A stretch of DNA of 32,985 nucleotides, taken from positions 1-32,985 of the forward strand of contig JAHOYU010000047.1 in the NCBI GenBank assembly GCA_019038625.1. The letters are read 5' to 3'. Positions 3,019 to 32,985 of the stretch are shown here, in pieces. Position 1 is the stretch's first letter. Every line of letters starts with the position of its first letter. A program made the position numbers and the translations under genes. Origin of the DNA: Candidatus Latescibacterota bacterium (GTDB taxonomy: Bacteria > Krumholzibacteriota > Krumholzibacteriia > Krumholzibacteriales > Krumholzibacteriaceae). The notes below the pieces were generated by a model. The model did not search any database. It was not told the DNA's origin and was given only the letters and a program-made list of their open reading frames with translations.

Positions 3019-3034
3019 CCAGGCTTGAAAGATA

Positions 3035-3268
3035 ATGAAATCTTTTTTCAACATGATAGCTTTCGGCGCCACGTTGACAACGGGGATCGTAAGCGTCTTT
3101 CAGAATGTTCCTCTTATGGAATTCATCAAGAGGACCAGTGTGACATTTATCGTATTCTATTTTATGGGAGCTGCTCTTGCGGCCCTGTGGAATACGGCTG
3201 CCGTATATATGCCTTCATCTACCAAAAATGTCGTCAAGGAGAGTAGTGATGAGCAAGAGGATGGTTGA
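3035..3268 (+). CDS. Small membrane protein in flagellar operon, unknown function
   Basis: I do not recognise this 77-residue protein. It has hydrophobic stretches at about residues 6-22 and 35-60 (for example TFIVFYFMGAALAALW), which may be one or two membrane helices, and a short polar, acidic tail (SSDEQEDG). It begins 16 bases after the flhF stop and is probably co-transcribed with it. The ribosome-binding site is weak (an AGG about 11 bases upstream), so translation may depend on coupling. It lies where a MinD-like flhG is commonly found, but has no P-loop and is far too short to be FlhG. A role in flagellar assembly is inferred only from position. Confidence 0.6.
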   Translation: MKSFFNMIAFGATLTTGIVSVFQNVPLMEFIKRTSVTFIVFYFMGAALAALWNTAAVYMPSSTKNVVKESSDEQEDG

Positions 3269-3303
3269 CGTGATCGGCCTGGTCACAGCGGGAGAGTCAG
3301 GAG

Positions 3304-3477
3304 ATGACTGAGAAGATACATCCGGCCGACAGCCTGTACCCGGCCCATCATACTGTCCCATCAAATAAAGAGGACAGGGAGAAAAAGAGAAAGAAAAAAC
3401 GTGATGATGAAGGTGAGAAGAATAAAAAACACCTTCCTGATCCCGACGATGATCATCTTGTCGACAGGAGAGCCTGA
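3304..3477 (+). CDS. 57-residue highly charged protein in flagellar operon
   Basis: This short open frame lies in the otherwise empty stretch between the small membrane protein and the DUF2802-like gene. It starts MTEKIHPADSLYP, continues into a strongly basic and acidic centre (KRKKKRDDEGEKNKK) and ends DDDHLVDRRA. A GGGAGAG ribosome-binding site at 3290-3296 sits 7 bases before the ATG. Nothing hydrophobic is present, so it is presumably cytosolic and perhaps disordered outside a folded or binding terminus. Small charged proteins of unknown role do occur in flagellar operons, so I favour a real gene. No function can be read from the sequence. Confidence 0.55.
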   Translation: MTEKIHPADSLYPAHHTVPSNKEDREKKRKKKRDDEGEKNKKHLPDPDDDHLVDRRA

Positions 3478-3536
3478 GCAATGACTGCTCAAGATATGAG
3501 GGATTCTGCCGAAAACTGTCGAAACGGAGTGTGGTT

Positions 3537-4010
3537 ATGGATTTTATAGAATCATTGTCTTTTACCTACGCGTTGATCATATCCGCAGGGGCAGCCTTTC
3601 TGATATCTATCTGGCCCGGATATCTGGTTTTCAGGAAGCGGAGGGCCGGCAGGAAGAAGGATAAGATAAGAACTGATTATACGCCTCAGCCAGCCGTCGT
3701 CAGCAGTTACATGTCGACCGCGGTGACAGTACCGGACGAGTTTCCTGAAATGGCTCAACGTATGGGGACTGTCCTGGACAGGATCGAATCATCCGTTGGG
3801 TCGTGCGTGGAGCTCTGTGGGAGACTTCTCGAACAGGAAGTATCTATTTCAATGGGGTCGGGGGGCAGGTCCGGACCCATACACGATCTCTCCGGGAGGA
3901 TAAGGGAGATGATGGCTCAGGGCGATGACGAAGAAACAATAGCCGGTGTACTCAGTATTGACAGGGAGATGTTGAAGCTCTATCTGCATGCCGGGGGTAA
4001 CAGAAACTGA
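3537..4010 (+). CDS. DUF2802-like membrane-anchored protein in flagellar cluster
   Basis: The 157-residue product has one N-terminal membrane helix (about residues 8-30), a basic stop-transfer stretch (RKRRAGRKK), a variable linker, a helical segment with two cysteines and a C-terminal region (IREMMAQGDDEETIAGVLSI) resembling the helix-turn-helix-like end of DUF2802 proteins, which are frequent in flagellar and chemotaxis clusters. The start is taken at ATG 3537 because GGAG at 3526-3529 is 7 bases away; the GTG at 3531 would leave only one base. A perfect hairpin begins at its last stop-codon base. Function is unknown. The DUF2802 assignment rests on architecture and position, not on a search. 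Confidence 0.65.
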   Translation: MDFIESLSFTYALIISAGAAFLISIWPGYLVFRKRRAGRKKDKIRTDYTPQPAVVSSYMSTAVTVPDEFPEMAQRMGTVLDRIESSVGSCVELCGRLLEQEVSISMGSGGRSGPIHDLSGRIREMMAQGDDEETIAGVLSIDREMLKLYLHAGGNRN

Positions 4011-4030
4011 CCGTACCCGCCAGGTACGGT
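4010..4030 (+). other. Perfect 8-bp RNA hairpin between DUF2802-like and HDOD genes
   Basis: ACCGTACC (4010-4017) and GGTACGGT (4023-4030) form a perfect stem with a 5-base loop directly at the stop codon. No T-run follows, so it is not a classical intrinsic terminator. It could be a processing or stability element, or a weak attenuator, separating expression of the upstream flagellar genes from the HDOD genes. It also argues against the ATG at 3988 as the start of the next gene. Confidence 0.55.
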
Positions 4031-4050
4031 CCTGGAAGTTGCAGGACTAT

Positions 4051-4911
4051 ATGGTACAGAAAGTATCGATAGATAAACTGATAATGCTGACGGGAGATCT
4101 CCCGCCGATGCCATACGTGGCCAGACGGGTGATGGATGTAGTGAATGATTCATCCACCGACGCTCATATACTTCAGGAGATCATTTCCAAGGATCAGGGC
4201 CTTGCTGGCCAGATCATGAAAATTGCGAACTCTGCTCTCTACGCGTGCAGCCGAAGGATCGAGACCCTGACAGACGCGATCGTGATGCTCGGGTTCAACT
4301 CCATCAGGAGCCTTTCGATCATGGCCGCTACAAAGAATCTTTACGAATTCACAAGAAGAGGAAAGATCCTCGGGTTGAAGGACAAGTTGATGTGGGAGCA
4401 TTCCGTCGCTGCGGCGATGACGGCGCGGATAGTCGCCCAGAAGGTACGGCCGGCTATGATCGAGAAGGCTTTTATGGGAGGGTTACTCCATGATATCGGC
4501 AAGCTCGTGATCCTTCAGAAGCTACCCGATGTCTTCGACAGTATAGTCGAGGAAGTATACAACACAGGCCGACATTTTGCCGAGGTAGAGATGGAATTAC
4601 TCGAGTTCACCCATGCTGAGGTCGGAGCGATGTTGATGAAAAAGTGGAAACTGCCCGAGGAGTTCGAGAATGCTGTGCGTTATCATCATGAGGTGACGGC
4701 TGAGACGAATCTCGACAGCCAGCTGATATATTTCATCGATTTGGCCAACATGATATGCCATAAGCTGGGGCTTGGTTTTATCAAGGAACCCGGGCTGGAA
4801 CTCTCATCCGAGATCTCGACCATGAGACTGGGTGTAGCGGAAGATGATCTGGAGAAGATGATCGAGATGACCAACAGTGCTCTGGATCAGGAATTGACCA
4901 CCTTTATGTAG
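4051..4911 (+). CDS. HDOD domain regulatory protein 1
   Basis: The 286-residue product is almost entirely an HDOD domain, a relative of HD phosphohydrolases found in signalling and motility regulators. It keeps an HD-like residue set: EHS near residue 117, LLHDIGK near 147, a later HAE and YHHE pair, and an aspartate in FIDLAN. Most HDOD proteins have no demonstrated hydrolase activity, so catalysis is not implied. I chose the start ATG 4051 (GCAGGA just upstream; the product then begins right at the domain). An upstream in-frame ATG at 3988 would add 21 residues encoded across the hairpin and the end of the preceding gene. It is followed after 15 bases by a second HDOD gene, suggesting paired regulators co-expressed with flagellar genes. 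Confidence 0.85.
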   Translation: MVQKVSIDKLIMLTGDLPPMPYVARRVMDVVNDSSTDAHILQEIISKDQGLAGQIMKIANSALYACSRRIETLTDAIVMLGFNSIRSLSIMAATKNLYEFTRRGKILGLKDKLMWEHSVAAAMTARIVAQKVRPAMIEKAFMGGLLHDIGKLVILQKLPDVFDSIVEEVYNTGRHFAEVEMELLEFTHAEVGAMLMKKWKLPEEFENAVRYHHEVTAETNLDSQLIYFIDLANMICHKLGLGFIKEPGLELSSEISTMRLGVAEDDLEKMIEMTNSALDQELTTFM

Positions 4912-4926
4912 GGTTGGAGCTGCAGA

Positions 4927-5853
4927 TTGACAACCAGTGTAAAAAACGGGATCACTACTGAAGAAGTAAGTGATTTACAAGCAAGCGAGGATGAGGATCT
5001 TCGCTTCGAAGAGATGATAACCAGGATTTCCGATCTGCCCACTCTTCCGAGTACTATGATGAAGATATGGACGATCCTGGAATCGCCGGATAGTTCATCC
5101 TCTGATATCGAAAAAGTGATAGCCCTGGATCAAACGCTTGCTGCCAAGGTCATCAGGCTCGCAAATTCTCCTTTTTATCACACTCCTTCAGAAATCGGGA
5201 GTGTCAAGAGCGCTATTGTGAACGTCGGATTCGATGCGGTCAGAAATCTTGTGATCGCTGTATCGGTCACGTCGATGCTTAAAAAACTCGATAGCACGAA
5301 TAAATATTTCCCCCTCAAGGAGTTCTGGAGACATAGTGTGGGGACGGGAGTGGCCGCAAGGGAGTTCGCTGGAAAAGTGCAGGGCGTCGACAGGGAGCTG
5401 TGTTTCTGTGCAGGCATTCTCCACGATATCGGGAAATTTGCGATGAATCTCCTGTTGCCCGAGAAATACGCTGAAGTACTTTCGTTGGCTGCCAGGGCTG
5501 ACCTGTTCATCAGAGAGGCGGAAGAACGTGTGACCGGCACCGATCACACGATGGTCGGGGAATTGTTTGCCAGGCACTGGTCATTTTCGAGACCCCTGAC
5601 AAGGATAATAGGGGATCACCACAAGACGCCGGATGACATCGATGATGCGTTCCTTCTTGAAGTCGCTGTCATTCAACTCGCCGATGGAGTAGTGCGGGAT
5701 ATCGAATACGGTTTCCCCGGAGATTTTAAAAAGGGCGACGCTTCGAAGCGTCTCTTTGACCTGTTCGATATCGACGATCAATTTATCGAACAATTTCAGA
5801 ATTCCATTTTTGAAAAAATAGAGATGGCGGGAGAGATCCTGAATCTGGTCTGA
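4927..5853 (+). CDS. HDOD domain regulatory protein 2 (TTG start)
   Basis: A 308-residue HDOD protein with an acidic N-terminal extension of about 25 residues, then the domain. RHS, ILHDIGK, TDHT, DHHK and IQLAD mark the same HD-type residues as in the preceding gene. The start is a TTG preceded at good spacing by GGAG (about 4915-4918); the next in-frame ATG (about 5014) would cut into the domain. It lies 15 bases after the first HDOD gene, so both are probably one transcript. The two are clearly related but diverged, consistent with an old tandem duplication. A role in chemotaxis, motility or second-messenger signalling is inferred from family and context. No intrinsic terminator follows in the next 180 bases. 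Confidence 0.85.
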   Translation: MTTSVKNGITTEEVSDLQASEDEDLRFEEMITRISDLPTLPSTMMKIWTILESPDSSSSDIEKVIALDQTLAAKVIRLANSPFYHTPSEIGSVKSAIVNVGFDAVRNLVIAVSVTSMLKKLDSTNKYFPLKEFWRHSVGTGVAAREFAGKVQGVDRELCFCAGILHDIGKFAMNLLLPEKYAEVLSLAARADLFIREAEERVTGTDHTMVGELFARHWSFSRPLTRIIGDHHKTPDDIDDAFLLEVAVIQLADGVVRDIEYGFPGDFKKGDASKRLFDLFDIDDQFIEQFQNSIFEKIEMAGEILNLV

Positions 5854-5938
5854 AGTCTCAGGCCGTACCGGGTCAGCCGCATGACAGGGGATACGCTGAA
5901 GTCCCTTATGTTTCGCAGATATCTCATTCACATACAAT

Positions 5939-5967
5939 TTGACACGATCGGTTTCTCAATGTAGTCT
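5939..5967 (+). promoter_or_regulatory. Candidate sigma-70 promoter upstream of the DUF62 gene
   Basis: A perfect -35 TTGACA (5939-5944) is separated by 17 bases from a weak -10 TAGTCT (5962-5967). It would start a transcript near 5974, about 63 bases before the DUF62 start codon. The rest of the 183-base gap shows no gene. The -10 matches only three consensus positions. Confidence 0.35.
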
Positions 5968-6036
5968 TGGTCTGTAAACTTTTTCCCGCTTAGTCTCCGG
6001 GGTCTTTTCTGTGGATGATTCGAGGGTAGGTCGTTC

Positions 6037-6864
6037 ATGAATCCTTCTTCTATTATAGTCCTTCTTACGGATTTCGGCAGTTCGAGCTGGTATATCGGCG
6101 TGATGAAAGGCGTTATTCTGTCTATTGCGCCCCAGGCGAGGATCGTGGACCTCTGCCATAACGTCTCGTCCCAGGACGTGCGTGAAGGATCTTTCATTCT
6201 TGGAAACAGTTACAGATATTTCCCTGTGGGTTCTGTTTTCGTATGTGTCATCGATCCCGGGGTGGGAGGGGAGAGGAAGAATCTCATTATAGAGACGGAT
6301 AAACATTATTTCGTCGGCCCCGATAATGGAATATTTACTCCGGTTTTCGAGGACAACAGATCACTCCATGTTCATCAGGTCACCTCGGATGAATATACGC
6401 TGGCCGGGAAAGGCAGCACATTTCTCGGCCGGGACCTGTTCGCGCCTGTAGCCGCCCACATCTCGCTTGGAGTGGATCCGTCATCCATAGGTCCCGGGCT
6501 TTCGACCATCACCACCATGCCTCGATCCGAACCTGTCATAAAGGATGGTTTAGAGATAAGAGGCAGGATAGCCTATATAGATTCGTTTGGAAATATCATC
6601 ACCGATATCAGCAGGGAAGCCCTTGATTCGGTCTTTGCCGATTCCACTGGAGCCAGGTTGAAAGTAGTCATTGGCGGGAGGACCGTCGAAGGGATAAAGG
6701 AATATTACGGTCAGGAGGTTTCCGGAAGATTGATGGCGGTAATCAATAGTTGGGGTTATCTCGAACTTGCTGTCAATATGGGAAGCGCGTGGGAATATCT
6801 CGGATTGAGAGAAAAAAGATCCGTTTCGATAGTTGTGACTCGCCGTGGGAATGGAAATCCGTGA
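6037..6864 (+). CDS. SAM hydroxide adenosyltransferase (DUF62) family protein, catalytic His replaced
   Basis: The family (DUF62; relatives include SAM chlorinases and fluorinases) splits S-adenosylmethionine to adenosine plus methionine with water, or uses a halide in the halogenase branch. The 275-residue protein shows LTDFG (10-14), DPGVGGER (73-80), GPDNG (94-98), a TFxGRD motif (128-133) and DSFGNIITDI (182-191), covering both the catalytic N-domain and the beta-barrel C-domain at normal length. Asp73 and Arg80 of the expected Asp-Arg-His triad are present. The motif usually written TFHGRD reads TFLGRD, so Leu130 replaces the histidine. It stands alone, with its own likely promoter, before the DUF4097 gene. 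The family is secure; the exact reaction is not. Confidence 0.9.
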   Translation: MNPSSIIVLLTDFGSSSWYIGVMKGVILSIAPQARIVDLCHNVSSQDVREGSFILGNSYRYFPVGSVFVCVIDPGVGGERKNLIIETDKHYFVGPDNGIFTPVFEDNRSLHVHQVTSDEYTLAGKGSTFLGRDLFAPVAAHISLGVDPSSIGPGLSTITTMPRSEPVIKDGLEIRGRIAYIDSFGNIITDISREALDSVFADSTGARLKVVIGGRTVEGIKEYYGQEVSGRLMAVINSWGYLELAVNMGSAWEYLGLREKRSVSIVVTRRGNGNP

Positions 6865-6937
6865 AACAAACAGATGCCAGGATACGTTTATCAGATATGC
6901 GGTGTATTACTGGTTTTCGAACTCTGGGGGTACGGTC

Positions 6938-23377: not shown

Positions 23378-24652
23378 GTGGAATTGACTGGGAATCTGAT
23401 ACTGGCTGTATCCGTTATAATCCTCCTATTTCTTTCAGCGTTTTTCTCAGGATCAGAGACGGCACTCTTTTCTCTGTCCCGCTTGTCTGTTTCCGGGATG
23501 ATCGATGGTGGCGTACGCCGACGTCGAGTGTCGGAACTTCTTGAGAAGCCACGGATGCTTCTGGTGACTATCCTTTTCGGTAACCTTCTCGTCAATATAG
23601 CCAGTACAAGCGCCGTAACGGCTCTCGCGATAAAGCTGTTCGGTGAGAGGGGGCTGGGCTATTCGATGGTGCTCATGACCTTCCTGATTCTTATCTTTGG
23701 GGAGATTACACCGAAAAGCCTCGCTTTGAAGCATGGACCTGTTCTGGCACCGATGTTAGCCGGTCCCTTGAAACTGTTGATGTGGCTGTTCTGGCCGGTG
23801 AGGATCGTACTTGGATGGATCGCCGATTCCACGGTAAACAGAAGCAAGAAGCTGTTCGGTGAGAGTCACGAAAGATATGAATCGAGCGAGCTCGCTACTG
23901 CAGTAGAGATGGGCCATATCGATGGTGTATTTGACGAGTTCGAGAAGGATGTCCTGGTTAATTTTTTCCATTTCACAAAGAGGGGCCTGAGCGAGATATT
24001 GACTCCCAGAGTCGAAGTGTTTTCGCTGGATGCCGATACAGGGCTGCAGGACGCGATAATCCAGGTCAGGGCAAAAGGGTATTCGAGAATCCCGCTTTTT
24101 GAGGATTCGGCAGAAAATATTGTAGGGATACTCAACGCCCGGGATATGCTGGGGCATGATCGTGATGAGAAGATAATTGTCCGGGATCTGATGAAGCCGG
24201 TAACATTTGTTCCCGAGACAAAAAAGGTCCGTGATCTGTTGGGAGAACTCCTGTCGTTAAGGGAGCATGTCGCCATCGCCGTGGATGAGCATGGATCGTT
24301 TGAAGGGATTGTGACTCTTGAGGATATCCTGGAAGATATTTTCGGCGAGATCCGTGACAGGCTGGAGCCCAGAGTAGACGAGTTCAATCTCATCGACAAC
24401 GACAGGATAGTAGTCGAAGGCGCAATGAAACTGGAGGACCTCAACGACAGGTTCGGAACGATGCTCGATTCATTGGAAGTCGAGACGATAGGTGGATATC
24501 TGATCGAGCATGCCGGCAGGATACCCAGAGAAGGAGAGGTGTTCAGGGTAGGTGAACTGAGATTCCTGATCCTGTCGGCAGAACCGGTAAGGATCAACAA
24601 GGTGAAGATCGAGAGACAGAAGAATATGGAGGACCGTGATGAGCACGATTAA
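23378..24652 (+). CDS. CNNM/CorC-family membrane protein with CBS and CorC_HlyC domains
   Basis: The 424-residue protein has an N-terminal CNNM (DUF21) membrane domain (about 1-190; SAFFSGSETALF, FGEITPKSLALKHG), a CBS pair (about 200-325; ILTPRVEVFSLD, RIPLFEDS, VTLEDILEDIFGEI) and a C-terminal CorC_HlyC domain (about 335-420; ETIGGYLIEHAGRIPREGE). This is the full set seen in proteins linked to magnesium/cobalt handling and, misleadingly, to hemolysin. It is presumably an inner-membrane ion transporter or efflux regulator. The start is GTG 23378; the nearest Shine-Dalgarno-like GGAAGG is 13 bases away, and a TTG at 23384 is possible. It overlaps the following paralogue by 14 bases. Confidence 0.92.
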   Translation: MELTGNLILAVSVIILLFLSAFFSGSETALFSLSRLSVSGMIDGGVRRRRVSELLEKPRMLLVTILFGNLLVNIASTSAVTALAIKLFGERGLGYSMVLMTFLILIFGEITPKSLALKHGPVLAPMLAGPLKLLMWLFWPVRIVLGWIADSTVNRSKKLFGESHERYESSELATAVEMGHIDGVFDEFEKDVLVNFFHFTKRGLSEILTPRVEVFSLDADTGLQDAIIQVRAKGYSRIPLFEDSAENIVGILNARDMLGHDRDEKIIVRDLMKPVTFVPETKKVRDLLGELLSLREHVAIAVDEHGSFEGIVTLEDILEDIFGEIRDRLEPRVDEFNLIDNDRIVVEGAMKLEDLNDRFGTMLDSLEVETIGGYLIEHAGRIPREGEVFRVGELRFLILSAEPVRINKVKIERQKNMEDRDEHD

Positions 24653-25610
24653 TACAATCATCATCATAATCGTCACTATCCTTCTGTCGGCGTTTTTCTC
24701 AGGATCAGAGACGGCACTTATATCCTGCAGCAGGATCCGGATGCGAAATCTGGCGAAACATGGTTCCCGAAGGGCGCGTATGGTCGAACGCTTCCTCGAG
24801 TCCCCCGAACAGTTTTTCAGCATAGTACTCGTCGGTACAAACCTGGCTGTAATCATCTGTACAGCTACAGCGACCGCGCTTGCAATCGAGAATTTCGGGC
24901 AGGCGGGGGTCCTTATCGCCACACTGGTGATGACCCCTTTGCTTCTTGTCTTCGGAGAAGTCGTTCCCAAGGCCGTCTATCTATATCACGCGGATCGGAT
25001 CGCGATGGCTGTAGCTCCTCTGCTGAAAATCATGTTCTACATTCTGTGGCCGTTAGTGATCCCCGTGACATGGCTTGCCCGATTACTGACAGGAACCTCG
25101 GATGAAGAGGAGAGAAAACTCAATATCATCTCCACGCGGGAAGAACTCATATTTTTGTACAACAGGGGCAGAGATGAGGGTTCCCGGGAGAAGCTCGAGA
25201 CGAGGATGATCGACAGGATGTTCAAGTTCCGGATCGTCCGGGTCGGAGACCTGATGGTTCCGATGGCCGATGTAGTATCGTTTTCGGTGGAATCCTCGAT
25301 CGACGAGATAGTGGCTGGAGTGGACAACCATTCCTGGTCACGATTTCCGATCGTCTCGCCTGAAAATGGGAGAGTGGCAGGAATAATCTCGACATTCGAC
25401 CTTCTGGGACTGGATGGCGGCGAGATGCTGTCTTCGGTGATGCATAAGCCATTCGTTTCACGGGAGGATGAATTCGCAGAGAGGCTTCTGATAAGCATGA
25501 AGGAAGATCCTCTGCACCTGGCAGTAGTAGAGGATGATGACGGGAACCCCCTCGGCATAGTGACACTTGAGGATATTCTTGAAAATATCATCGGTGACAT
25601 AGCTACCTGA
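24639..25610 (+). CDS. CNNM/CorC-family membrane protein, short paralogue
   Basis: A 323-residue relative of the preceding gene. It has the CNNM domain (about 1-170; SAFFSGSETALISC, FGEVVPKAVYL) and a CBS pair (about 200-322; DLMVPMADVVSFS, RFPIVS, VTLEDILENIIGDI), but ends right after the second CBS domain and lacks the CorC_HlyC domain. The end is clean, so this is a shorter form rather than an evident truncation. ATG 24639 has GGAGG 6 bases upstream (24628-24632); a GTG at 24636 is closer to it. It overlaps the first paralogue by 14 bases, so the pair may act as a heteromeric complex. A 29-base stretch is identical in the two genes. Confidence 0.9.
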   Translation: MSTINTIIIIIVTILLSAFFSGSETALISCSRIRMRNLAKHGSRRARMVERFLESPEQFFSIVLVGTNLAVIICTATATALAIENFGQAGVLIATLVMTPLLLVFGEVVPKAVYLYHADRIAMAVAPLLKIMFYILWPLVIPVTWLARLLTGTSDEEERKLNIISTREELIFLYNRGRDEGSREKLETRMIDRMFKFRIVRVGDLMVPMADVVSFSVESSIDEIVAGVDNHSWSRFPIVSPENGRVAGIISTFDLLGLDGGEMLSSVMHKPFVSREDEFAERLLISMKEDPLHLAVVEDDDGNPLGIVTLEDILENIIGDIAT

Positions 25611-25707
25611 AAAAACTCATAAAGATATTGCCGGTAAATCCGAAATTAAGTGAGTAGGCCGGACGATTCGCTGTAGGATCATACTATTCTGATAAGGAGT
25701 CCATAAG

Positions 25708-26607
25708 ATGACTGTCATAGATCTGTCCAGAGTTATCGGCAGTATCAACCAGATACCTCCTCTGCCAGCTGCAGCTACCAGACTTATCAGTACGGTCTCC
25801 AATCCTGATCACGCACTGGGGGACGTAATCAGGATAGTCGAGAATGATTCGACCATCACTGCTTATGTCCTGAAAGTGGCGAATTCCGCGTTTTCGGCCC
25901 AGAGAGAGTATGTCTCCTCGGTGAAGGACGCTATATTGCTTCTCGGTGAAAATATGGTCATAAGCGCCGCTTTGCGGGTCTGCGCCTCCGGTTTGTTTGG
26001 GAAATCTCTTGATGGATATGAGGCAGACAGCTGGTCGATGTGGAAGCATAGTATGGGGACGGCGGTAGCCGCAAAATATATCAACGCTTTCATCAAGGAC
26101 GGGGATTATTCTGATGTCGTGTATACAGCAGGAATCATGCATGATATAGGGAAAGTAGTCATCTCGGATTTTTTATCCGGCAAGCCCGGAGAGATCAAGT
26201 TGATTCTTGAGGAGTCCGGCCAGAAAGATTTTCTGTACGGAGAGAGAGAGGTCCTGGGGACCGATCATTGTGAGGTCGGTGGCCTTCTGGGCGAGAAGTG
26301 GAATTTCCCTGAGTCGATAATATCGGTGTTGCGTTATCACCACCATCCTGCTGAATCACCGGAACAGTGGAAACCTCTGGTCCATATCGTCCAGCTTGCC
26401 GATGCGGTGGCGATGATGTGTGGGGCGTCGACGGGGAACGACTGCCTTCAGTACGAGATCGACAAGGGACACATGAACTATCTCGACATCTCCGAACAGG
26501 ACATGGAAAAGATCATGAGGACCACAGAAACCGAAGTGGAGACCCTCATGGGACTCATGTCCGACGACACAGAGTATAAACAGGATCAAAAGGACGATCC
26601 CAGCTGA
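25708..26607 (+). CDS. HDOD domain regulatory protein 3
   Basis: A 299-residue HDOD protein, the third in the window and separate from the flagellar pair. Residues marking the HD-like site are present: KHS near 114, IMHDIGK near 148, TDHCEVG near 190, RYHHHP and VQLAD. The C-terminal 25 residues are polar and acidic. AAGGAG at 25695-25700 gives a 7-base spacing to ATG 25708. It follows the CorC-like pair by 97 bases without a terminator and ends 13 bases from the convergent hutH-like gene. A signalling role is inferred from the family; no partner is evident beside it. Confidence 0.87.
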   Translation: MTVIDLSRVIGSINQIPPLPAAATRLISTVSNPDHALGDVIRIVENDSTITAYVLKVANSAFSAQREYVSSVKDAILLLGENMVISAALRVCASGLFGKSLDGYEADSWSMWKHSMGTAVAAKYINAFIKDGDYSDVVYTAGIMHDIGKVVISDFLSGKPGEIKLILEESGQKDFLYGEREVLGTDHCEVGGLLGEKWNFPESIISVLRYHHHPAESPEQWKPLVHIVQLADAVAMMCGASTGNDCLQYEIDKGHMNYLDISEQDMEKIMRTTETEVETLMGLMSDDTEYKQDQKDDPS

Positions 26608-26620
26608 CCTGCCTGTGATA

Positions 26621-28144
26621 TTACTCCAGCGTTCCGATCTCTTTTTCGACTTCCTCAAGGATCTCACAGGACTTTACAAGTTCTTTCATCGCTGTATGAT
26701 CGGGGTAGAGAGGCCTGTCGATATCGAGGAACTCGACGTGGCGGCGAACCACTTCTTTTGCCTTTGCCACACCCTTGCCGAAATTGAACTCTCGGAAATC
26801 AAGAGCCTGCGCCGCAGCCATGAACTCGATGCCCAGAACGCCGAATGCGTTGTCGAGGATCTGGAAGTTCTTGATGGCGGTGTTCATTCCCATCGAGACG
26901 AAATCTTCCTGGTCGGCGGCTGCCGGTATCGACTGTATTGATGCCGGGGCCGACAGGATCCGCTGCTCCACGATCTGCATGTCAGCCGTGTACTGGCTCA
27001 GCATAAGGCCGGAGAACATTCCTGCGCCTTTGGTAAGAAAAGCAGGAAGGCCTACGCTGAGAGCCGGATTGTTCAGCCTGTTCATTCTTCTTTCAGACAT
27101 GACACTGACCATCGTGATCGCTGCTCCGATCATATCCATAGGCAGGGAGACCGGAGTTCCCTGGAAGTTCGCGCCCGAAAGGTGGATATTTTCCTCGGGG
27201 AAGAATATCGGGTTGTCGCCAACGCCGTTCAGCTCGATCTCGACCTGTGACCTCGCATAGGCGAGGGCGTCGTGGACCGCGCCTATGACCTGTGGAGTCG
27301 ACCGCATCGAGTATGCGTCCTGGACCTTGCATTTGATCTTGCCTTCCACAAGGTCTCCGCCTGTGACCAGTTTTCTGATGGCGGCGGCCGATCTCTGGGC
27401 GCCCTTGAATCCACGGATCTTGTGAAGCTGCGGGCTGTACGGTTTCATGTTGGCCTTGAGAGCCTCCAGCGACATCGAGGCAGCTATTTCAGCCTGCTTC
27501 AGCCATCTGTTCGAGTCGTAAATCATGATTGCGCTCATCGCCGTCAACAGGTTTGAACCGTTGATCGTCGCAAGTCCGTCTCTTGCGAGGAGACCGGGGA
27601 TCGGTATTCCCGCCCTGTCCAGAGCTTCCTTGCCGGCAAGCAGTTCGCCCTTGTAAAAGGCTTTACCCTCGCCCATCATGAGCAGGGCGATCTGTGACAT
27701 CGGAGCCAGGTCCCCGGATGCACCGACCGAGCCTTTCTGGCATACAAAGGGAGTGACTCCCTTGTTCAGCATGTCGATCAAAGTCTGTGTTATCACCGGA
27801 CGGTTGCCGGAATTGCCGTGGGCGTGGACGTTGGCGCGGGATACCATCGCCCCGCGGACGTATTCTTCAGGGGCAGGATCGCCTATGCCTGCCGCGTGGT
27901 TGTATATGAGGTATTTCTGGAAATCCTTGATCTGGTCGTCGTCGAGGACGACTTCGGAGAACTCACCGATCCCGGTGTTGACACCGTACATGATCACGTT
28001 CGCTTCTATCTTCTCCTCAAGCATCGTCCGGCATTTTTTGATTCGCTCGACCGCTTCAGGCGCGAGCTCGACTTTCTCGTGATGCCTTGCTACTTTGACA
28101 AGCTTTTCAATCGTCAGTCCGGATCCGTCAAGGATGATCGCCAC
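26621..28144 (-). CDS. hutH: Histidine ammonia-lyase-like aromatic amino acid lyase (GTG start)
   Basis: Members of this family remove ammonia from histidine (to urocanate), phenylalanine or tyrosine, using a self-formed MIO group. The 507-residue length is typical for HutH. Visible are the catalytic Tyr53 in MYGVNTG, His83 in NHAAG, the MIO triad Ala142-Ser143-Gly144 in GASGDLAP, NGSNLL, YSMRSTPQVIG and ADQEDFVSMG. The glutamate in QED favours histidine over tyrosine or phenylalanine lyase, but the usual YSLRCxPQ has Ser in place of Cys and the HPGQ-type segment reads KGAQ, so the substrate is not certain. Translation starts at GTG 28144 after AGGGGG. No hutU, hutI or regulator is beside it. 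Confidence 0.85.
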   Translation of the reverse strand: MAIILDGSGLTIEKLVKVARHHEKVELAPEAVERIKKCRTMLEEKIEANVIMYGVNTGIGEFSEVVLDDDQIKDFQKYLIYNHAAGIGDPAPEEYVRGAMVSRANVHAHGNSGNRPVITQTLIDMLNKGVTPFVCQKGSVGASGDLAPMSQIALLMMGEGKAFYKGELLAGKEALDRAGIPIPGLLARDGLATINGSNLLTAMSAIMIYDSNRWLKQAEIAASMSLEALKANMKPYSPQLHKIRGFKGAQRSAAAIRKLVTGGDLVEGKIKCKVQDAYSMRSTPQVIGAVHDALAYARSQVEIELNGVGDNPIFFPEENIHLSGANFQGTPVSLPMDMIGAAITMVSVMSERRMNRLNNPALSVGLPAFLTKGAGMFSGLMLSQYTADMQIVEQRILSAPASIQSIPAAADQEDFVSMGMNTAIKNFQILDNAFGVLGIEFMAAAQALDFREFNFGKGVAKAKEVVRRHVEFLDIDRPLYPDHTAMKELVKSCEILEEVEKEIGTLE

Positions 28145-28344
28145 AGTGAACCCCCTGGTAAAGATATCATCTTTTCATGCCACACTTCAAATCAGCTTAT
28201 ACGGCCATGACCCTGCAGTCCCGGGCCTGTTTTGACAATGATCATGACCGACCCTTCGACTTTTCTATATATCATTTCATCATGATTAAGGCAAGACTCA
28301 AAACTGAGGTCGCCCAAGCCTGGCAGGGACACGAATCAAAACAT

Positions 28345-28647
28345 TCAGAAGGCCTTGATCAAAGAGAAGACCAGCAGGATAATCGCGAAGATGTTGATGA
28401 TAGTCGCTGTCCTGCATATAGACTCGGTCTTCCGCCCGGAAGGGTCGATGAGGTTGAGGATTCGGGGAGCCTTGAGGAAGTTGGAGAGGCCGAGGAGCAG
28501 GAATGACGTTGCCCAGAGGGGTATCCCGGCGATGACCAGCATCTTCCGGAACATCGCTATGATACCGAGGAGTGAAAAGACGATTCCCCAGAAGAAATAT
28601 CCTCCACTTTTTTCTGTCGGCTGGTCCTGTTTGTTTTCTGCGTCCAT
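28345..28647 (-). CDS. Small membrane protein, unknown function
   Basis: A 100-residue protein with three membrane helices (about 17-33, 36-58 and 82-99) and short polar ends. I do not recognise the family. It lies 68 bases after the Cas4/RecB-like gene on the same strand and may be the last gene of that unit; no terminator was found after it. The ribosome-binding site is weak. The frame on the opposite strand is longer but reads as non-natural sequence, while this one has clear membrane topology. Confidence 0.6.
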   Translation of the reverse strand: MDAENKQDQPTEKSGGYFFWGIVFSLLGIIAMFRKMLVIAGIPLWATSFLLLGLSNFLKAPRILNLIDPSGRKTESICRTATIINIFAIILLVFSLIKAF

Positions 28648-28715
28648 CCCACAAGATATTGTTTCAGGGCTGGCAAATCAATCGCATTCCGATTGCATCA
28701 CATTCCGGTTGCACC

Positions 28716-29717
28716 TTATTCAAGGCGCAGCGAGTTGCCAGGTTCCTCGCATATACGGTAGAAATTGCAGAATCGGCATCTGGATGACACACTCTTCGGA
28801 AATGTATCAATCCCTTTTGCCTCATTTCTCTGTATATCTTCATCCACGAGGACTTCCGAGAGTTTCTTTATTCCCGCACGGATATGGTCCCGGAAGATGT
28901 CGATATTGTCGTCGTCTATCCTGTGCAGGATCTCATGGCCTCCATCGAGGAGATTGACTTCGTGGAGCCGAATAGATTCCAGTGGTTCCCTCATGACAGC
29001 CGAGGCATAATATCCATATACGCCGAGTTGTACGCCTGTCCTTGCTTTATGGTCGTTGGTCGATCTGCCCACGGTGCTGAACGTTTTCCAGTCTACGATA
29101 TCGAAGGTGCCGTCGAGTCCCCTGTAGATAAAATCAGTCTTGGCGAACACCCGGGCGCCGTCGAAATCGAATACCTGGGCGAACTCCGCAAGATCGATGT
29201 TTTCGATTATCCAGTATCGCGAGTCGGTCTTTGCGATCTCCTGCAGGATCGGACTTTCCAGCAGTCCTCTGATTCCTTCCCGGCATTCCTCTATCGTCTT
29301 TTCGATCTTTTCGTCCGGGATGGGTCGGTCATACTCGTGCTCGAACAGTGCCAGCCAGTCTATGTTCAGATGATCGCCGCGTTTTTTAGGCTCTGTGAGA
29401 TAAGCCCTGGAGGATGAGAATCTCATCTGGCTGTGAAAACGCTTCTCAATATAATCAGTGACATCGCCGGACTCCGGGATCGTTCCCTTTTTCCTCAGTG
29501 AGGCGAGTACTTTTGTCGCTACATAGTGTACTAGCTGGCCACGCCATAGCGGGAGGGACATCAGCCGTTTCAGTTTGAATGCTTCGCGGCAGATAGAGGA
29601 AGAGGAGGCGTACCAGCCTCCCCAACTCAGATAATAATGAAAGTAATAACTCCGAAGACAGGTCTCGAAAAGCGATTCTCTCGATATCGACCAACCAAAC
29701 CTGTTATTTATAGCCAT
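28716..29717 (-). CDS. Cas4/RecB-like PD-(D/E)XK nuclease with four-cysteine cluster
   Basis: A 333-residue protein with the RecB-family nuclease pattern: His64 in RGQLVHYVA (motif I), Asp195 in AKTDFIYRG, Asp209-Trp-Lys211 in FDIVDWKT (the catalytic D...DxK), and QLGVYGYY with Gln230 (the QLxxY motif). One cysteine, Cys20, lies near the N-terminus and three, Cys314, Cys317 and Cys323, near the C-terminus in CRFCNFYRIC, as in Cas4 and AddB-type proteins carrying a 4Fe-4S cluster. A DNA exonuclease or DNA-processing role is likely. There is no CRISPR array or other cas gene in the window, so this is a stand-alone member. It follows the small nuclease-fold gene by 58 bases on the minus strand. 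Confidence 0.85.
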   Translation of the reverse strand: MAINNRFGWSISRESLFETCLRSYYFHYYLSWGGWYASSSSICREAFKLKRLMSLPLWRGQLVHYVATKVLASLRKKGTIPESGDVTDYIEKRFHSQMRFSSSRAYLTEPKKRGDHLNIDWLALFEHEYDRPIPDEKIEKTIEECREGIRGLLESPILQEIAKTDSRYWIIENIDLAEFAQVFDFDGARVFAKTDFIYRGLDGTFDIVDWKTFSTVGRSTNDHKARTGVQLGVYGYYASAVMREPLESIRLHEVNLLDGGHEILHRIDDDNIDIFRDHIRAGIKKLSEVLVDEDIQRNEAKGIDTFPKSVSSRCRFCNFYRICEEPGNSLRLE

Positions 29718-29775
29718 AATCTCTTAATGCTCCGGTCGATGCTGTCCAGAATCTGATCCAGGCAGGATCTGACCA

Positions 29776-30234
29776 TTACTTATCGAAGATTCCCCGGTAC
29801 AATCTGTTTTCGAGCCGGTAGCCTTCGAATTCGTAATCGAACTTCATGGTCTGCTTGCCTCGCAGTGCGACATCCCTGTTGGTATACATGTATAAATGAT
29901 ACTTGCCGCCGGCTTTCTGCTGAGCGAGTTTCTTGTATTCGTCCCATCTGAACAGCCAGATCCGAAGTGTGCTGATATCGACGCAGGCGATATAGTCGGC
30001 CGGGTTGTCGAGTGGTACCCACCAGTCCAGTGCCATCTTTCCCTTGCCTCCTGCCCTTTTTGGCTGAAGGTTTGTCGTGACCAGTATTTTCCAGAGGCGC
30101 CTGGGTCTGACCAGTTCCACTTCCAGGTCATAACCTTTTCCCGTTAATTCGCACGGAATCCCATGACTCAGCAGCATGGAGCTGACGAACAGCTTCCCAC
30201 TGACTCCGATCATGCTTTTCGGTATCTCTGCCAT
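29776..30234 (-). CDS. Small PD-(D/E)XK-like protein, degenerate active site
   Basis: A 152-residue protein whose layout resembles small PD-(D/E)XK endonuclease-like proteins: an N-terminal helix with GVSGKLFVSSMLLSHGIPCEL, then GKGYDLEVE with Asp36, a strand WKILVTT where the family usually has QVKT, and PADYIACVDISTLRIWLF as the closing strand pair. The helix position normally carrying Glu has Lys (GK not GE), and the catalytic Lys is Thr53 or displaced, so activity is doubtful. ATG 30234 has GGAGG just upstream; a longer reading to 30264 lies inside acpS. It begins one base after the acpS stop, followed by the Cas4/RecB-like nuclease. The family call is by eye and tentative; the gene itself is convincing. 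Confidence 0.6.
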   Translation of the reverse strand: MAEIPKSMIGVSGKLFVSSMLLSHGIPCELTGKGYDLEVELVRPRRLWKILVTTNLQPKRAGGKGKMALDWWVPLDNPADYIACVDISTLRIWLFRWDEYKKLAQQKAGGKYHLYMYTNRDVALRGKQTMKFDYEFEGYRLENRLYRGIFDK

Positions 30235-30235
30235 T

Positions 30236-30616
30236 TTATCCTCCTTCCAGGATGACGAGGGCATGTGCCATATCCCCGTCGTGTGTGAGGCTCAAGTGAC
30301 AGAAAGCGACATTCCGCTGCTTCAGGGCATCTTTCACCCTATCTGATAATAAAAAAGCGGGTTTGCCCTTATTCCCCCGGACAACGCCTACTTCTTTCAG
30401 GGAGAGACCTGTACCCCAGCCTGTACCAAGGGCCTTGAAAAAAGCCTCCCTGGCCGCGAATCTCGCAGCAAAGAAATGGGCACTATCCATGCGTTTCAAG
30501 CCTTCCTCGATTTCATCCCCCGTGAAGACCTTGTGCAGAAAGCGCTTTCCGTATTTATCGATCAATCCCGATATTCTCGGGATAAAAACCATATCTGTTC
30601 CAATTCCGAATATCAT
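30236..30616 (-). CDS. acpS: Holo-[acyl-carrier-protein] synthase
   Basis: AcpS transfers the phosphopantetheine arm of coenzyme A to acyl carrier protein for fatty acid synthesis. The 126-residue protein shows GIGTDMVFIPRI (4-14, with the magnesium ligand Asp8), FFAARFAAREAFFKALGTG (48-66, with Glu57 and Lys61) and LSLTHDGDMAHALVI near the end, all at the normal length. The ribosome-binding site of the start ATG 30616 is weak. Its stop is followed one base later by the nuclease-fold gene, so the two are coupled. Confidence 0.95.
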   Translation of the reverse strand: MIFGIGTDMVFIPRISGLIDKYGKRFLHKVFTGDEIEEGLKRMDSAHFFAARFAAREAFFKALGTGWGTGLSLKEVGVVRGNKGKPAFLLSDRVKDALKQRNVAFCHLSLTHDGDMAHALVILEGG

Positions 30617-30672
30617 AGGGTTCTGTTTTATTCCTTCCCATCGAGCAGGTTGGAGAGTCCGATCAATTCATA

Positions 30673-30701
30673 TTGCAGTCAGCGATATTTGCAGGTAGAA
30701 T
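30673..30701 (+). promoter_or_regulatory. Sigma-70 promoter of the radical SAM gene
   Basis: -35 TTGCAG (30673-30678), a 17-base spacer and -10 TAGAAT (30696-30701, five of six consensus). The transcript would start near 30708 with an AT-rich leader of about 60 bases. It lies in the gap shared with divergent acpS. Confidence 0.6.
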
Positions 30702-30767
30702 GACCATACCATTTTTATGAATTTAGTTAAATACAAATATGTAAATATTTTTTGACAGGAATCAGAT

Positions 30768-31643
30768 ATGCCGAAGTATGAATATCCTCTATACAGGCCT
30801 CCAAGTGAAGCTCAATCTCTTATTTTTCAAGTGGCATTGGGATGTTCGCATAACAGGTGCCTCTTCTGTTACATGTATAAGGAAAAGCAGTTCCGGGTGA
30901 GACCATGGAGTGAGTTAAGTGATGAGATCGACGATGCGGCTGTCAATTATCCCGGGACCAGGAAGGTTTTTCTGGCAGATGGCGACGCGTTCGCCCTTTC
31001 CAGCGATAAACTGGCGCAGATACTCGATCATATCAGAGACAGCTTTCCCATGCTTCAGAGAGTGACCGCCTATGCTAATCCAGCAAATCTTATCGCGAAA
31101 TCTGTTGAGGAAATGACAATGCTCAGGGAGAAGGGCTTGACGATCCTGTACTATGGTGTCGAATCTGGCGATCCAGAGGTGTTGGGGAAGATCGACAAGG
31201 GTGCTACGCCTGATGAGATGGCCGAAGGGTGTATCAAGGCGACGGAGGCAGGCCTGAAGCTTTCAGTCACTGTTATACTGGGACTTGCGGGACGATCCGG
31301 CAGCGAAAACCACGCGCGGAAGACAGCCACGCTGATCAACCGGATCCAGCCGAGATATCTCAGTGCCCTCACATTGATGCTCGGCCATCATGAAGATGAA
31401 TATCTTGCCGGAATGGGAGACGGGTTCGAATTCAACGATGCAATAGATGATATCAGGGAGCTGAGGATGTTTATCGAAGGCCTTGATAACGACAGGTGTA
31501 TTTTCAGGAGCAACCATGCTTCCAATTATCTGGCACTGGCGGGCAATCTCCAGAAGGACAAGAAAGCTCTTCTGGCTACGATAGACACGGCTCTCGACAA
31601 ACCTGAATCATATCTCCGGGATGAGTGGATGAGGGGGCTCTGA
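30768..31643 (+). CDS. Radical SAM protein with CX4CX2C cluster motif
   Basis: A 291-residue radical SAM enzyme. The iron-sulfur ligands are Cys26, Cys31 and Cys34 in GCSHNRCLFCYMYK, spaced C-x4-C-x2-C rather than the usual C-x3-C-x2-C. The SAM-binding region follows: LADGDAF, then YYGVESGDPEVLGKIDKG and VTVILGLAGRSG, typical of HemN/MiaB-like barrels. The C-terminal 100 residues are helical without another cysteine cluster. I recognise the GCSHNxC form as a recurring uncharacterised group, but cannot name its reaction. It has its own promoter and converges on the GNAT gene 14 bases away. Confidence 0.9.
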   Translation: MPKYEYPLYRPPSEAQSLIFQVALGCSHNRCLFCYMYKEKQFRVRPWSELSDEIDDAAVNYPGTRKVFLADGDAFALSSDKLAQILDHIRDSFPMLQRVTAYANPANLIAKSVEEMTMLREKGLTILYYGVESGDPEVLGKIDKGATPDEMAEGCIKATEAGLKLSVTVILGLAGRSGSENHARKTATLINRIQPRYLSALTLMLGHHEDEYLAGMGDGFEFNDAIDDIRELRMFIEGLDNDRCIFRSNHASNYLALAGNLQKDKKALLATIDTALDKPESYLRDEWMRGL

Positions 31644-31657
31644 GTTTCTGCGCGGTG

Positions 31658-32620
31658 TTATCTCGATGACAGGATCTTTCGGAACCACGAGTCGGAGATA
31701 TATGTGTCGTATTCGACTTTTTCCCCACCCCAGCTTTCTTTGTAGTCAATCAGGCTTTGTGCGTACCTGGGGGACGATCCGAGGTTTATCTTTTTTATTC
31801 CCGCTTTATTTCCCATCTGGATGCCATCGAACATCAGGACATGGTTGGGTTTGAGGTGTCTGTACTCGTAATCGGACACCACCTGCCAGCTGAACAGAGT
31901 GTCATGATAGATGAATTTGATGCTCGATCCGATCATCCGGTCTTTGTACACAAGGCTTTTCCAGTAAAGGATGTCCGTTCCACCGAGGTGCTTGAGAATG
32001 CTGTTGAAGAAATGCCTGCTGTACAGGGGCCTTATCGATCCGTGTCTTTTCTCGGTCATCTCGTAGATCTTGTAGAATTCCTTTACATGTTCCTTCGTTG
32101 AGATCTCGACCAGACTGGTGTCGGCTTTTAATCCAGAGCGTATATGCCGCCCGACACTCTTTCTGCTCGGAAAGTGGGGGCCGTTTCCGTTGAGTTTGAT
32201 GATATGAGTGAAAGATTCCGTGTGACTGAGGAAAGGTTCGCTCAATCTGGAAAAATTCCTGTTAAAATCAGTTATCGCTATTCTGGAGAATCGACCCTTC
32301 TTGAGATATATTACGAGGTGAACGTAGAATTCGTCTCTTTGAGTATCATCGGTCCCTTCAGCCATAACGACTTCTCCATATGTGCCGTATGGCATGGAGT
32401 AGAATGATCTCATGCCGAATTTTTTTGTGATCACTGCGGGCATTCCGGCCACCAGACGGTCGTTTTCATATCCGCAGAGGAATTCCGCATGAGCTCCTGG
32501 AGAGAGTCCGTCTACACATGTATCGATCCATTGGTGACTGTGGAAAAAGGAACTGGTGCAAGTCAACTTTTCCCACTCATCAATGTTGAGATTTTTTCGG
32601 TCGATTATCCTGAAATCCAT
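31658..32620 (-). CDS. GNAT/FemAB-like acyl- or aminoacyl-transferase
   Basis: A 320-residue protein that looks like a two-domain GNAT fold of the FemAB / BioF2-like type: an N-terminal half with SSFFHSHQWIDTC and FYSMPYGTYGEVV, a middle SVGRHIRSGLKADTSLVEIST, and a C-terminal half with IGSSIKFIYHDTLFSWQ, HLKPNHVLMFDGIQMGNKAG and INLGSSPRYAQSLIDYKESWGG. Such proteins modify peptidoglycan, polysaccharide or lipids; the substrate is unknown. Start ATG 32620 has GGAG about 5 bases upstream and starts at the domain. A longer reading to 32713 would add 31 residues without conserved look. It converges on the radical SAM gene. Confidence 0.75.
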   Translation of the reverse strand: MDFRIIDRKNLNIDEWEKLTCTSSFFHSHQWIDTCVDGLSPGAHAEFLCGYENDRLVAGMPAVITKKFGMRSFYSMPYGTYGEVVMAEGTDDTQRDEFYVHLVIYLKKGRFSRIAITDFNRNFSRLSEPFLSHTESFTHIIKLNGNGPHFPSRKSVGRHIRSGLKADTSLVEISTKEHVKEFYKIYEMTEKRHGSIRPLYSRHFFNSILKHLGGTDILYWKSLVYKDRMIGSSIKFIYHDTLFSWQVVSDYEYRHLKPNHVLMFDGIQMGNKAGIKKINLGSSPRYAQSLIDYKESWGGEKVEYDTYISDSWFRKILSSR

Positions 32621-32716
32621 TATATCTCCGGGAATGTCTTCGGGTGTACAAACCGGGCCGCGCTGAATTCTGCTATGATTATATGTAATCTTGCTGCGCC
32701 TGATTCCTGTCAAGCG

Positions 32717-32745
32717 AATCTAATATATAGGTGAATTATAGTCAA
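32717..32745 (-). promoter_or_regulatory. Candidate sigma-70 promoter upstream of the GNAT gene
   Basis: On the minus strand, -35 TTGACT (32745-32740), a 17-base spacer and -10 TAGATT (32722-32717, four of six consensus). It would start a transcript about 90 bases before the GNAT start codon. A TATAAT further downstream has no -35 at a good distance. Confidence 0.4.
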
Positions 32746-32985
32746 TACCTTAAGGTAATGTAGCTTTTATACATGCCACTGGGATCTGTATTCGGTCTGC
32801 TGGGGCTTGTTTTCAATCCATACCTTTGAGAAATACCTCCGAAACATGTCTTCATGACAGCCTTCCGGACATCTGCTTCGAACATTCCCTCCCCAATCAT
32901 CCCCTCTTCGAATGTTCCTTCTTCAAATGTCCATCTATTTTCTTTTTCCCAAAGTCTTTGACAGCCTTGTGCTGATTGTGACGTC
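32742..32985 (-). CDS. Possible gene fragment running off the right edge
   Basis: One minus-strand frame stays open from the right edge to a TGA at 32744-32742, giving 80 residues with no start in the window. It contains a short repetitive stretch (WTFEEGTFEEGMIGEGMFE) and then an unremarkable end (KTCFGGISQRYGLK). A second minus frame is open for 28 residues from the edge to 32897 and also looks protein-like, so the correct frame is not settled. No family is recognised. If neither is coding, the 365 bases from 32621 hold only the GNAT promoter and repeated TTCGAA-type motifs. Confidence 0.3.
   Translation of the reverse strand, partial: TSQSAQGCQRLWEKENRWTFEEGTFEEGMIGEGMFEADVRKAVMKTCFGGISQRYGLKTSPSRPNTDPSGMYKSYITLRY

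What the first reader, a model, noticed from the sequence alone, without database searches (positions are those of the whole stretch)
28345..30616. acpS-linked unit with two nuclease-fold proteins and a membrane protein
Seen: acpS is coupled by one base to a small PD-(D/E)XK-like protein, then a Cas4/RecB-like nuclease with a Cys20/Cys314/Cys317/Cys323 cluster, then a three-helix membrane protein, all on the minus strand. No CRISPR or cas gene is nearby. Inference: an uncharacterised DNA-repair or defence unit riding on a housekeeping gene, with an inactive nuclease-fold partner paired to an active one.
Basis: partly seen in the sequence, partly recalled or inferred. Interest (0 to 1): 0.55.

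Follow-up and report, generated by a model that had tools for sequence, protein, structure and literature searches.

The report
Dead nuclease paired with live nuclease
In one order of uncultured Krumholzibacteriota, a small DNA-cutting-type protein that has lost its cutting residues is kept under strong selection next to an intact iron-sulphur-type nuclease, behind a housekeeping gene; its closest relatives, which still look able to cut, are free-standing genes, some of them integron cassettes.

Summary
The four minus-strand genes are real: acpS, P1 (152 aa), P2 (333 aa), P3 (100 aa). P2 is a PDDEXK_1 nuclease with catalytic residues and four cysteines invariant in 27 of 27 aligned sequences; its best solved match is the Argonaute-associated Cas4-family protein ACE1 (Z 18.5). 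P1 folds as a PD-(D/E)XK nuclease (pLDDT 90.5; best match I-Ssp6803I, Z 13.4) but looks dead: 18 of 18 Krumholzibacteriota copies lack the Gln and Lys of the QxK motif, 17 of 18 the helix Glu. All 23 relatives examined elsewhere keep D and QxK; some lie in integron cassette arrays. P1 is under purifying selection (dN/dS 0.06-0.27), is basic, and in 5 of 18 genomes has a Lys/Arg-rich tail. P1 lies beside P2 in 18 of 18 genomes, across 12 genera and two families; P2 persists without P1 in four. acpS adjoins in 21 of 22; P3 is not core. The block is vertically inherited chromosome, not a defence island. Best reading: P1 is a DNA-binding accessory of the P2 nuclease, in DNA-end processing or restriction of foreign DNA. 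The physical partnership is inferred, not shown.

The parts
30236..30616 (-). acpS, holo-ACP synthase (126 aa), first gene of the run
   Evidence: NCBIfam TIGR00516 4.3e-26 over cut-off, Pfam ACPS 6.9e-15; adjacent to P1 or P2 in 21 of 22 order genomes with the junction visible
29776..30234 (-). P1: small PD-(D/E)XK-fold protein (152 aa), catalytic residues lost
   Evidence: AF2 pLDDT 90.5; I-Ssp6803I Z 13.4, NhoI 10.1, Hjc 9.9; K53/Q51 lost in 18 of 18, E14 in 17 of 18; purifying selection
28716..29717 (-). P2: Cas4/RecB-like PDDEXK_1 nuclease (333 aa) with predicted Fe-S cysteines C20, C314, C317, C323 and intact H64, D195, D209, K211, Q230, Y234
   Evidence: Pfam PF12705 1.5e-15; PADLOC Aga_Cas4-like_Nuc 1.1e-27; invariant residues in 27 of 27; ACE1 9iab Z 18.5, profile E 6e-9
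28345..28647 (-). P3: small membrane protein (100 aa); accessory, not part of the conserved core
   Evidence: hydrophobic stretches; phmmer relatives in 9 genomes only, between P2 and the aromatic amino acid lyase gene

Best explanation
acpS-P1-P2 is a vertically inherited chromosomal run in one order of Krumholzibacteriota. P2 is an active Fe-S-type Cas4/RecB-like exonuclease, related in fold to ACE1 and to AdnA/AddB nuclease domains. P1 belongs to a small stand-alone PD-(D/E)XK nuclease family (Hjc / I-Ssp6803I-like fold), some members of which travel as integron cassettes; in the ancestor of this order it lost its catalytic residues, most simply once, and was kept as a basic DNA-binding protein. 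Most likely P1 binds DNA (an end, a branched structure or a modified site) and recruits, positions or restrains P2, as the inactive nuclease-like domain of RecC serves active RecB (precedent recalled). The activity serves DNA-end processing in genome maintenance, or degradation of incoming DNA. Shown by computation: folds, residue losses, selection, synteny, tails. Inferred: DNA binding by P1, nuclease activity of P2, contact between them, and the cellular role. The link to acpS is read as operon hitch-hiking.
For: P1 nuclease fold at high confidence. Clean split in the P1 tree: 18 Krumholzibacteriota rows form one side of a branch with 100/100 support and all lack K53 and Q51, while 23 of 23 other rows have D36, Q51 and K53. 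P1 dN/dS 0.055-0.27 in the 8 of 9 pairs that could be computed, so it is not decaying. P1 cores have pI 9.1-10.2 (median 9.55) against a median of 8.58 in the 23 others; 5 of 18 P1 proteins carry C-terminal tails of 35-62 residues, 40-57% Lys+Arg. P1 is adjacent to P2 in 18 of 18, with a gap of 10 bases or less, or an overlap, in 11 of the 17 genomes measured. P2 catalytic and Cys residues invariant in 27 of 27; P2 fold ACE1, AdnA, AddB. Synteny (Tol-Pal-like genes, CNNM-like pair, P2, acpS, radical SAM) is shared across the order.
Against: P2 is kept without P1 in G005, G006, G021 and G023, three changes on the P2 tree, so P1 is not essential to P2. No complex was predicted. D36, N55, K59, K66 and D70 remain in all 18 P1 copies, so a relocated active site cannot be excluded. 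Adjacency could be inherited gene order rather than partnership, since the whole neighbourhood is syntenic.
Confidence: 0.5

Rival explanations
1. P1 and P2 have separate jobs and share only a transcript with acpS: P1 is a nucleoid- or structure-binding protein, P2 a stand-alone DNA-repair exonuclease.
For: P2 occurs without P1 in 4 of 22 visible junctions and in all 5 genomes of another family of the class that have a P2 relative, where its neighbours include lipoate-synthesis and metallo-beta-lactamase genes. The whole block is syntenic, so adjacency carries limited information. Lys/Arg-rich tails suit a nucleoid-type protein.
Against: P1 is never found without P2 in the order (18 of 18). 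In G012 the pair is kept although acpS is no longer the upstream neighbour.
Confidence: 0.28
2. Argonaute-independent interference: the main role of the pair is to degrade invading plasmid or phage DNA, as ACE1-type nucleases are thought to do with Argonaute (recalled).
For: P2 is closest in solved structures to ACE1 and matches PADLOC Aga_Cas4-like_Nuc at 1.1e-27. P1's fold neighbours include the SPARDA nuclease domain. In Synechococcus elongatus a Cas4-like nuclease and a PD-(D/E)XK protein hinder RSF1010 plasmids (PMC10653904, passages read); whether these are homologues of P1 or P2 was not tested.
Against: Vertical inheritance in a fixed housekeeping neighbourhood and low dN/dS, no defence genes next to it, no Piwi match in 58 genomes (sensitivity uncertain). 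P1 itself has no PADLOC match; 3 of 30 family rows weakly match a PADLOC Argonaute-associated nuclease.
Confidence: 0.15
3. P1 is still a nuclease, with a relocated lysine (K59 or K66) replacing K53.
For: D36, K59, K66 and D70 are invariant in all 18 copies; lysine migration is known in this superfamily (recalled).
Against: K59 and K66 are also present in most relatives that keep K53, so they probably serve another role; E14 (17 of 18) and Q51 (18 of 18) are gone as well.
Confidence: 0.07

Closest known systems
ACE1, Argonaute-associated Cas4 family protein 1 (PDB 9iab, 9iac)
   Same: Best structural match of P2 (Z 18.5, rmsd 3.6, 247 aligned) and best PDB profile match.
   Different: No Argonaute gene among P2's immediate neighbours and no Piwi match in 58 genomes (sensitivity uncertain); 16-20% identity; P2 is longer (333 against 266-269 residues in the solved chains) and has a pseudonuclease neighbour.
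Cas4-like proteins of pfam12705 (Hudaiberdiev et al. 2017, PMC5704561; abstract and section 8 read)
   Same: PF12705 match over cut-off, not CRISPR-linked; vertical inheritance, as the abstract reports for solo-cas4.
   Different: That section describes links to UvrD, COG1205 helicases and restriction systems; a link to acpS and a dead PD-(D/E)XK protein is not described there.
I-Ssp6803I, archaeal Hjc, NhoI/Eco15I, SPARDA nuclease domain
   Same: Fold of P1 (Z 13.4, 9.9, 10.1 and 10.5).
   Different: Those are active enzymes (recalled); P1 lacks the QxK residues. Sequence identity 10-17% in those rows.
RecBCD / AdnAB / AddAB
   Same: An active RecB-type nuclease; P2 aligns with AdnA (Z 14.6) and AddB (12.2), and weakly with RecC (5.5). 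RecC as an inactive nuclease-like partner is the recalled precedent.
   Different: No helicase among the adjacent genes, and P1 is a Hjc-like fold rather than a RecB-like one.

Membership tests
PDDEXK_1 / Cas4-RecB-like nuclease (P2) | Match to PF12705 over the gathering score | tested here: met
   58.3 bits against a cut-off of 22
PDDEXK_1 / Cas4-RecB-like nuclease (P2) | Catalytic residues H, D, D-x-K, Q-xxx-Y intact (motif recalled) | tested here: met
   H64, D195, D209, K211, Q230, Y234 invariant in 27 of 27
PDDEXK_1 / Cas4-RecB-like nuclease (P2) | Four Fe-S cysteines, one N-terminal and three C-terminal | tested here: met
   C20, C314, C317, C323 invariant in 27 of 27; presence of a real cluster not testable here
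ACE1 (Argonaute-associated Cas4) | ACE1 fold | tested here: met
   Z 18.5, 247 residues aligned
ACE1 (Argonaute-associated Cas4) | Encoded beside an Argonaute | tested here: not met
   Neighbours are acpS, aromatic amino acid lyase and radical SAM genes; PF02171 0 of 58 genomes, but of 14 control genomes only M. jannaschii rang, so a divergent Argonaute elsewhere in the genome may be missed
CRISPR adaptation Cas4 | cas1/cas2 or a CRISPR array nearby | tested here: not met
   No Cas1 in G000 and Cas1 in 1 of 20 family genomes; no repeats at 24000-32985; Cas4 model only E 0.022
Active PD-(D/E)XK nuclease (P1) | PD-(D/E)XK fold | tested here: met
   pLDDT 90.5, Z 13.4 to I-Ssp6803I
Active PD-(D/E)XK nuclease (P1) | E...D...QxK catalytic set | tested here: not met
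   K53 0 of 18, Q51 0 of 18, E14 1 of 18, D36 18 of 18
Integron cassette (P1 in the window) | attC site next to the gene | tested here: not met
   No RYYYAAC at 28300-30620; 1 attC-like pair in the whole window against 1.5 in shuffles
Defence island or known defence system | Defence neighbours or mobile, patchy occurrence | tested here: not met
   Shared synteny with housekeeping genes across two families; PADLOC finds only nuclease models in P2 and nothing in P1 or P3
Two-subunit nuclease complex | Physical contact between P1 and P2 | not testable with these tools
   No complex prediction available; only adjacency and co-occurrence

The most novel reading that the evidence does not exclude
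A stand-alone nuclease of a family that also travels as an integron cassette was captured by an ancestor of this order, lost catalysis once, and was rebuilt as the dedicated DNA-recognition or regulatory subunit of an ACE1-like Fe-S nuclease, giving an Argonaute-free, helicase-free two-subunit DNA-processing or DNA-interference enzyme.
Probability: 0.25. Interest if true: 0.7.

Novelty: new variant of a known kind. Interest (0 to 1): 0.5.

Why it matters
It is a clean natural case of a nuclease turned pseudonuclease: the catalytic-type residues are kept in 23 of 23 relatives, lost in 18 of 18 members of one clade, and the apparently dead protein is under strong purifying selection beside an intact nuclease. 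If the two work together, it would extend the RecC/RecB logic (dead nuclease domain guiding a live one; recalled) to a small two-gene system and would give solo Cas4-like nucleases, whose roles are open (PMC5704561), a tractable partner.

Tried and rejected
Considered and rejected. (1) CRISPR Cas4: no Cas1 in G000, no repeats. (2) P1 in the window as a present-day integron cassette: no attC-like site by the gene. (3) Argonaute partner: PF02171 0 of 58; weak as an absence, because among the 14 controls only M. jannaschii rang and the Synechococcus elongatus control, a species with a published Argonaute, did not. (4) P3 as core: 9 of 24. (5) Phage origin: no P1 or P2 match in 50,697 phage records. 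In IMG/VR there is one P1 relative (L110), which is in an integron array with its integrase on the same contig, and six distant P2 relatives at 23-31%. (6) Pseudogene: low dN/dS. (7) Co-occurrence of the QxK-bearing P1 relatives with P2-like nucleases: 1 of 19 genomes or records; none within the fetched flanks of L092-L110.

Led nowhere: no Pfam, NCBIfam or PADLOC family for P1 itself; weak Mrr_cat_2 matches in 15 of 30 family rows; nothing useful in NCBIfam; PHROG 5018, function unknown, in 19 of 30; no solved sequence relative of the P1 family; promoter and terminator scans no better than shuffles; paper searches on ACE1 found nothing held; the one paper holding acpS, Cas4 and nuclease together is on CRISPR delivery biomaterials (listing only). 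The ACE1 paper itself was not seen.

Full report
What is there. Four minus-strand genes lie at 28345-30616: acpS, P1 (152 aa), P2 (333 aa) and P3 (100 aa). The acpS stop and P1 start are one base apart. Upstream, divergent, is a radical SAM gene; downstream is an aromatic amino acid lyase gene. Close relatives found by name are mostly Candidatus Krumholzibacteriota MAGs.

P2. Pfam PDDEXK_1, 1.5e-15, over cut-off; PADLOC Aga_Cas4-like_Nuc 1.1e-27. In 27 aligned sequences H64, D195, D209, K211, Q230, Y234 and the four cysteines C20, C314, C317 and C323 are invariant. The AlphaFold2 model has pLDDT 90.7. Best PDB matches after re-alignment: ACE1 from Chroococcidiopsis (9iab, Z 18.5, rmsd 3.6, 247 aligned) and Microcystis (9iac, 18.1), then AdnA (14.6) and AddB (12.2). 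By sequence profile ACE1 is also first (6e-9 and 4.6e-7; 2.1e-11 and 1.4e-10 with alignment A4). So P2 is very probably an active Cas4/RecB-type nuclease of the ACE1 kind; activity itself was not tested.

P1. No Pfam, NCBIfam or PADLOC family. The AlphaFold2 model on alignment A3 has pLDDT 90.5, pTM 0.87. Foldseek gives E 2.4e-6 to the homing endonuclease I-Ssp6803I; re-alignment gives I-Ssp6803I Z 13.4, SPARDA 10.5, NhoI 10.1, Hjc 9.9.

P1 looks dead. A scan of one genome for each of 84,980 species with the P1 alignment gave 32 loci: 14 with the P1-P2 pair (L078-L091), and 18 at 38-47% identity (L092-L109), most in Pseudomonadota, one Phycisphaerales and one Gemmatimonadetes MAG; one more came from IMG/VR, and ten plasmid records from Variovorax, Mycolicibacterium, Curtobacterium and Microbacterium, of which four were fetched and used. 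In a tree of 41 rows the 18 P1 proteins of the window's order are one side of a branch (100/100). Residues at E14, D36, Q51, K53: in the 23 other rows E 22 of 22 (one row truncated there), D 23, Q 23, K 23; in the 18 rows of the window's order E 1, D 18, Q 0, K 0. The loss most simply happened once. It is not decay: dN/dS is 0.055-0.27 in the 8 of 9 pairs that could be computed, and for G000-G001 P1 (0.055) is below P2 (0.085) and acpS (0.23); in some other pairs P1 is above P2, for example G008-G017, 0.27 against 0.19.

P1 looks like a DNA binder. Core pI is 9.1-10.2, median 9.55, against a median of 8.58 (range 5.4-9.8) in the 23 other rows. Five of 18 (G004, G012, G013, G016, G018) have C-terminal tails of 35-62 residues that are 40-57% Lys+Arg with at most two acidic residues. 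N55, K59, K66 and D70 are kept in 18 of 18, and in most relatives that keep the catalytic set, though not in the Curtobacterium plasmid rows.

Co-occurrence. In 80 genomes of the phylum, P1 is in 18 and P2 in 29. P1 lies beside P2 in 18 of 18, across 12 genera and two families. Of 24 order genomes with P2, the P2 upstream junction is not visible in G002 and G019 because of contig ends; of the other 22, P1 is present in 18, and acpS directly precedes P2 in four (G005, G006, G021, G023); acpS adjoins in 21 of 22, the exception being G012. The P2 tree needs three changes of P1 presence. P2 relatives in a third family (5 genomes, 26-28% identity) lack P1; neighbours there include lipoate-synthesis and metallo-beta-lactamase genes. 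P3 is in 9 of 24.

Chromosomal setting. The Tol-Pal-like genes, a CNNM-like pair, P2, acpS, radical SAM and a GNAT-like gene recur in the same order in most of the longer contigs (the Tol-Pal, CNNM and GNAT names are my reading of the sequences, not from a family search). This is vertical inheritance, unlike a defence island.

Where the live-looking relatives are. L110 has 13 attC-like motif pairs against 0.6 in shuffles, and L097 has 15 against 0.34; the window has 1 against 1.5. Sites lie on both sides of P1 in L095, L103 and L110, and on one side in L094, L096 and L097; the other 13 of 19 loci show no such close flanking pair or only one that overlaps the gene, and counts per locus outside L097 and L110 are within the shuffle range. 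An integron integrase over the curated cut-off is in 11 of the 19 genomes or records that hold these relatives and, as a partial gene, in G000, against 0 of 14 controls. In L103 and L110 it lies on the same contig, with P1 the third ORF downstream in L103; for L097 the same contig is likely by contig number. So the family includes integron cassettes; that the Krumholzibacteriota copy arrived that way is conjecture. The QxK-bearing relatives do not travel with P2: 1 of 19 genomes or records has any P2-like gene.

Mechanism. Best supported: P1 is a DNA-binding accessory of the P2 nuclease (0.5). The RecC/RecB precedent is recalled. Alternatives are separate roles (0.28), interference with foreign DNA as the main role (0.15) and a hidden P1 activity (0.07). 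Published context: pfam12705 Cas4-like proteins lie outside CRISPR loci and solo-Cas4 roles are open (PMC5704561, abstract and section 8 read); in Synechococcus elongatus loss of ago, a cas4-like gene or a PD-(D/E)XK-like gene favours RSF1010 plasmids (PMC10653904, passages read). Whether those genes are homologous to P1 or P2 was not tested; the S. elongatus control did not ring with the Aga_Cas4-like model.

Limits. Most genomes are MAGs, some of low completeness. The Argonaute search has doubtful sensitivity. No complex could be predicted. Eighteen P1 sequences are too few for coevolution. Searches for a prior description cover open-licence papers only (listings).

Noticed in passing
L097, L103, L110 (also L094, L095, L096): Small Hjc/I-Ssp6803I-like nuclease genes with an intact E-D-QxK set sit in or near integron cassette arrays. 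The IMG/VR record of L110 carries an integron array with its integrase, so it may be misclassed as viral.
   Followed up: partly
G000:C99:29234-29839: A partial integron integrase over the curated cut-off in the window's own genome.
   Followed up: no
window 26621-28144: An aromatic amino acid lyase gene lies downstream of P3 with relatives in 8 other loci, the same genomes that carry P3.
   Followed up: no
L134 (Mycolicibacterium arabiense plasmid), 2502-6929: A P1 relative beside a dcm-type methyltransferase and an Eco57I-type methylase gene, a possible restriction setting.
   Followed up: no
G012:C47:718-1350: A Cas1 match about 28 kb from the P1-P2 pair in one relative, the only one of 20 family genomes with Cas1.
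   Followed up: no
G004, G012, G013, G016, G018 P1 proteins: Histone-H1-like Lys/Arg/Ala-rich tails on P1 in several lineages.
   Followed up: partly
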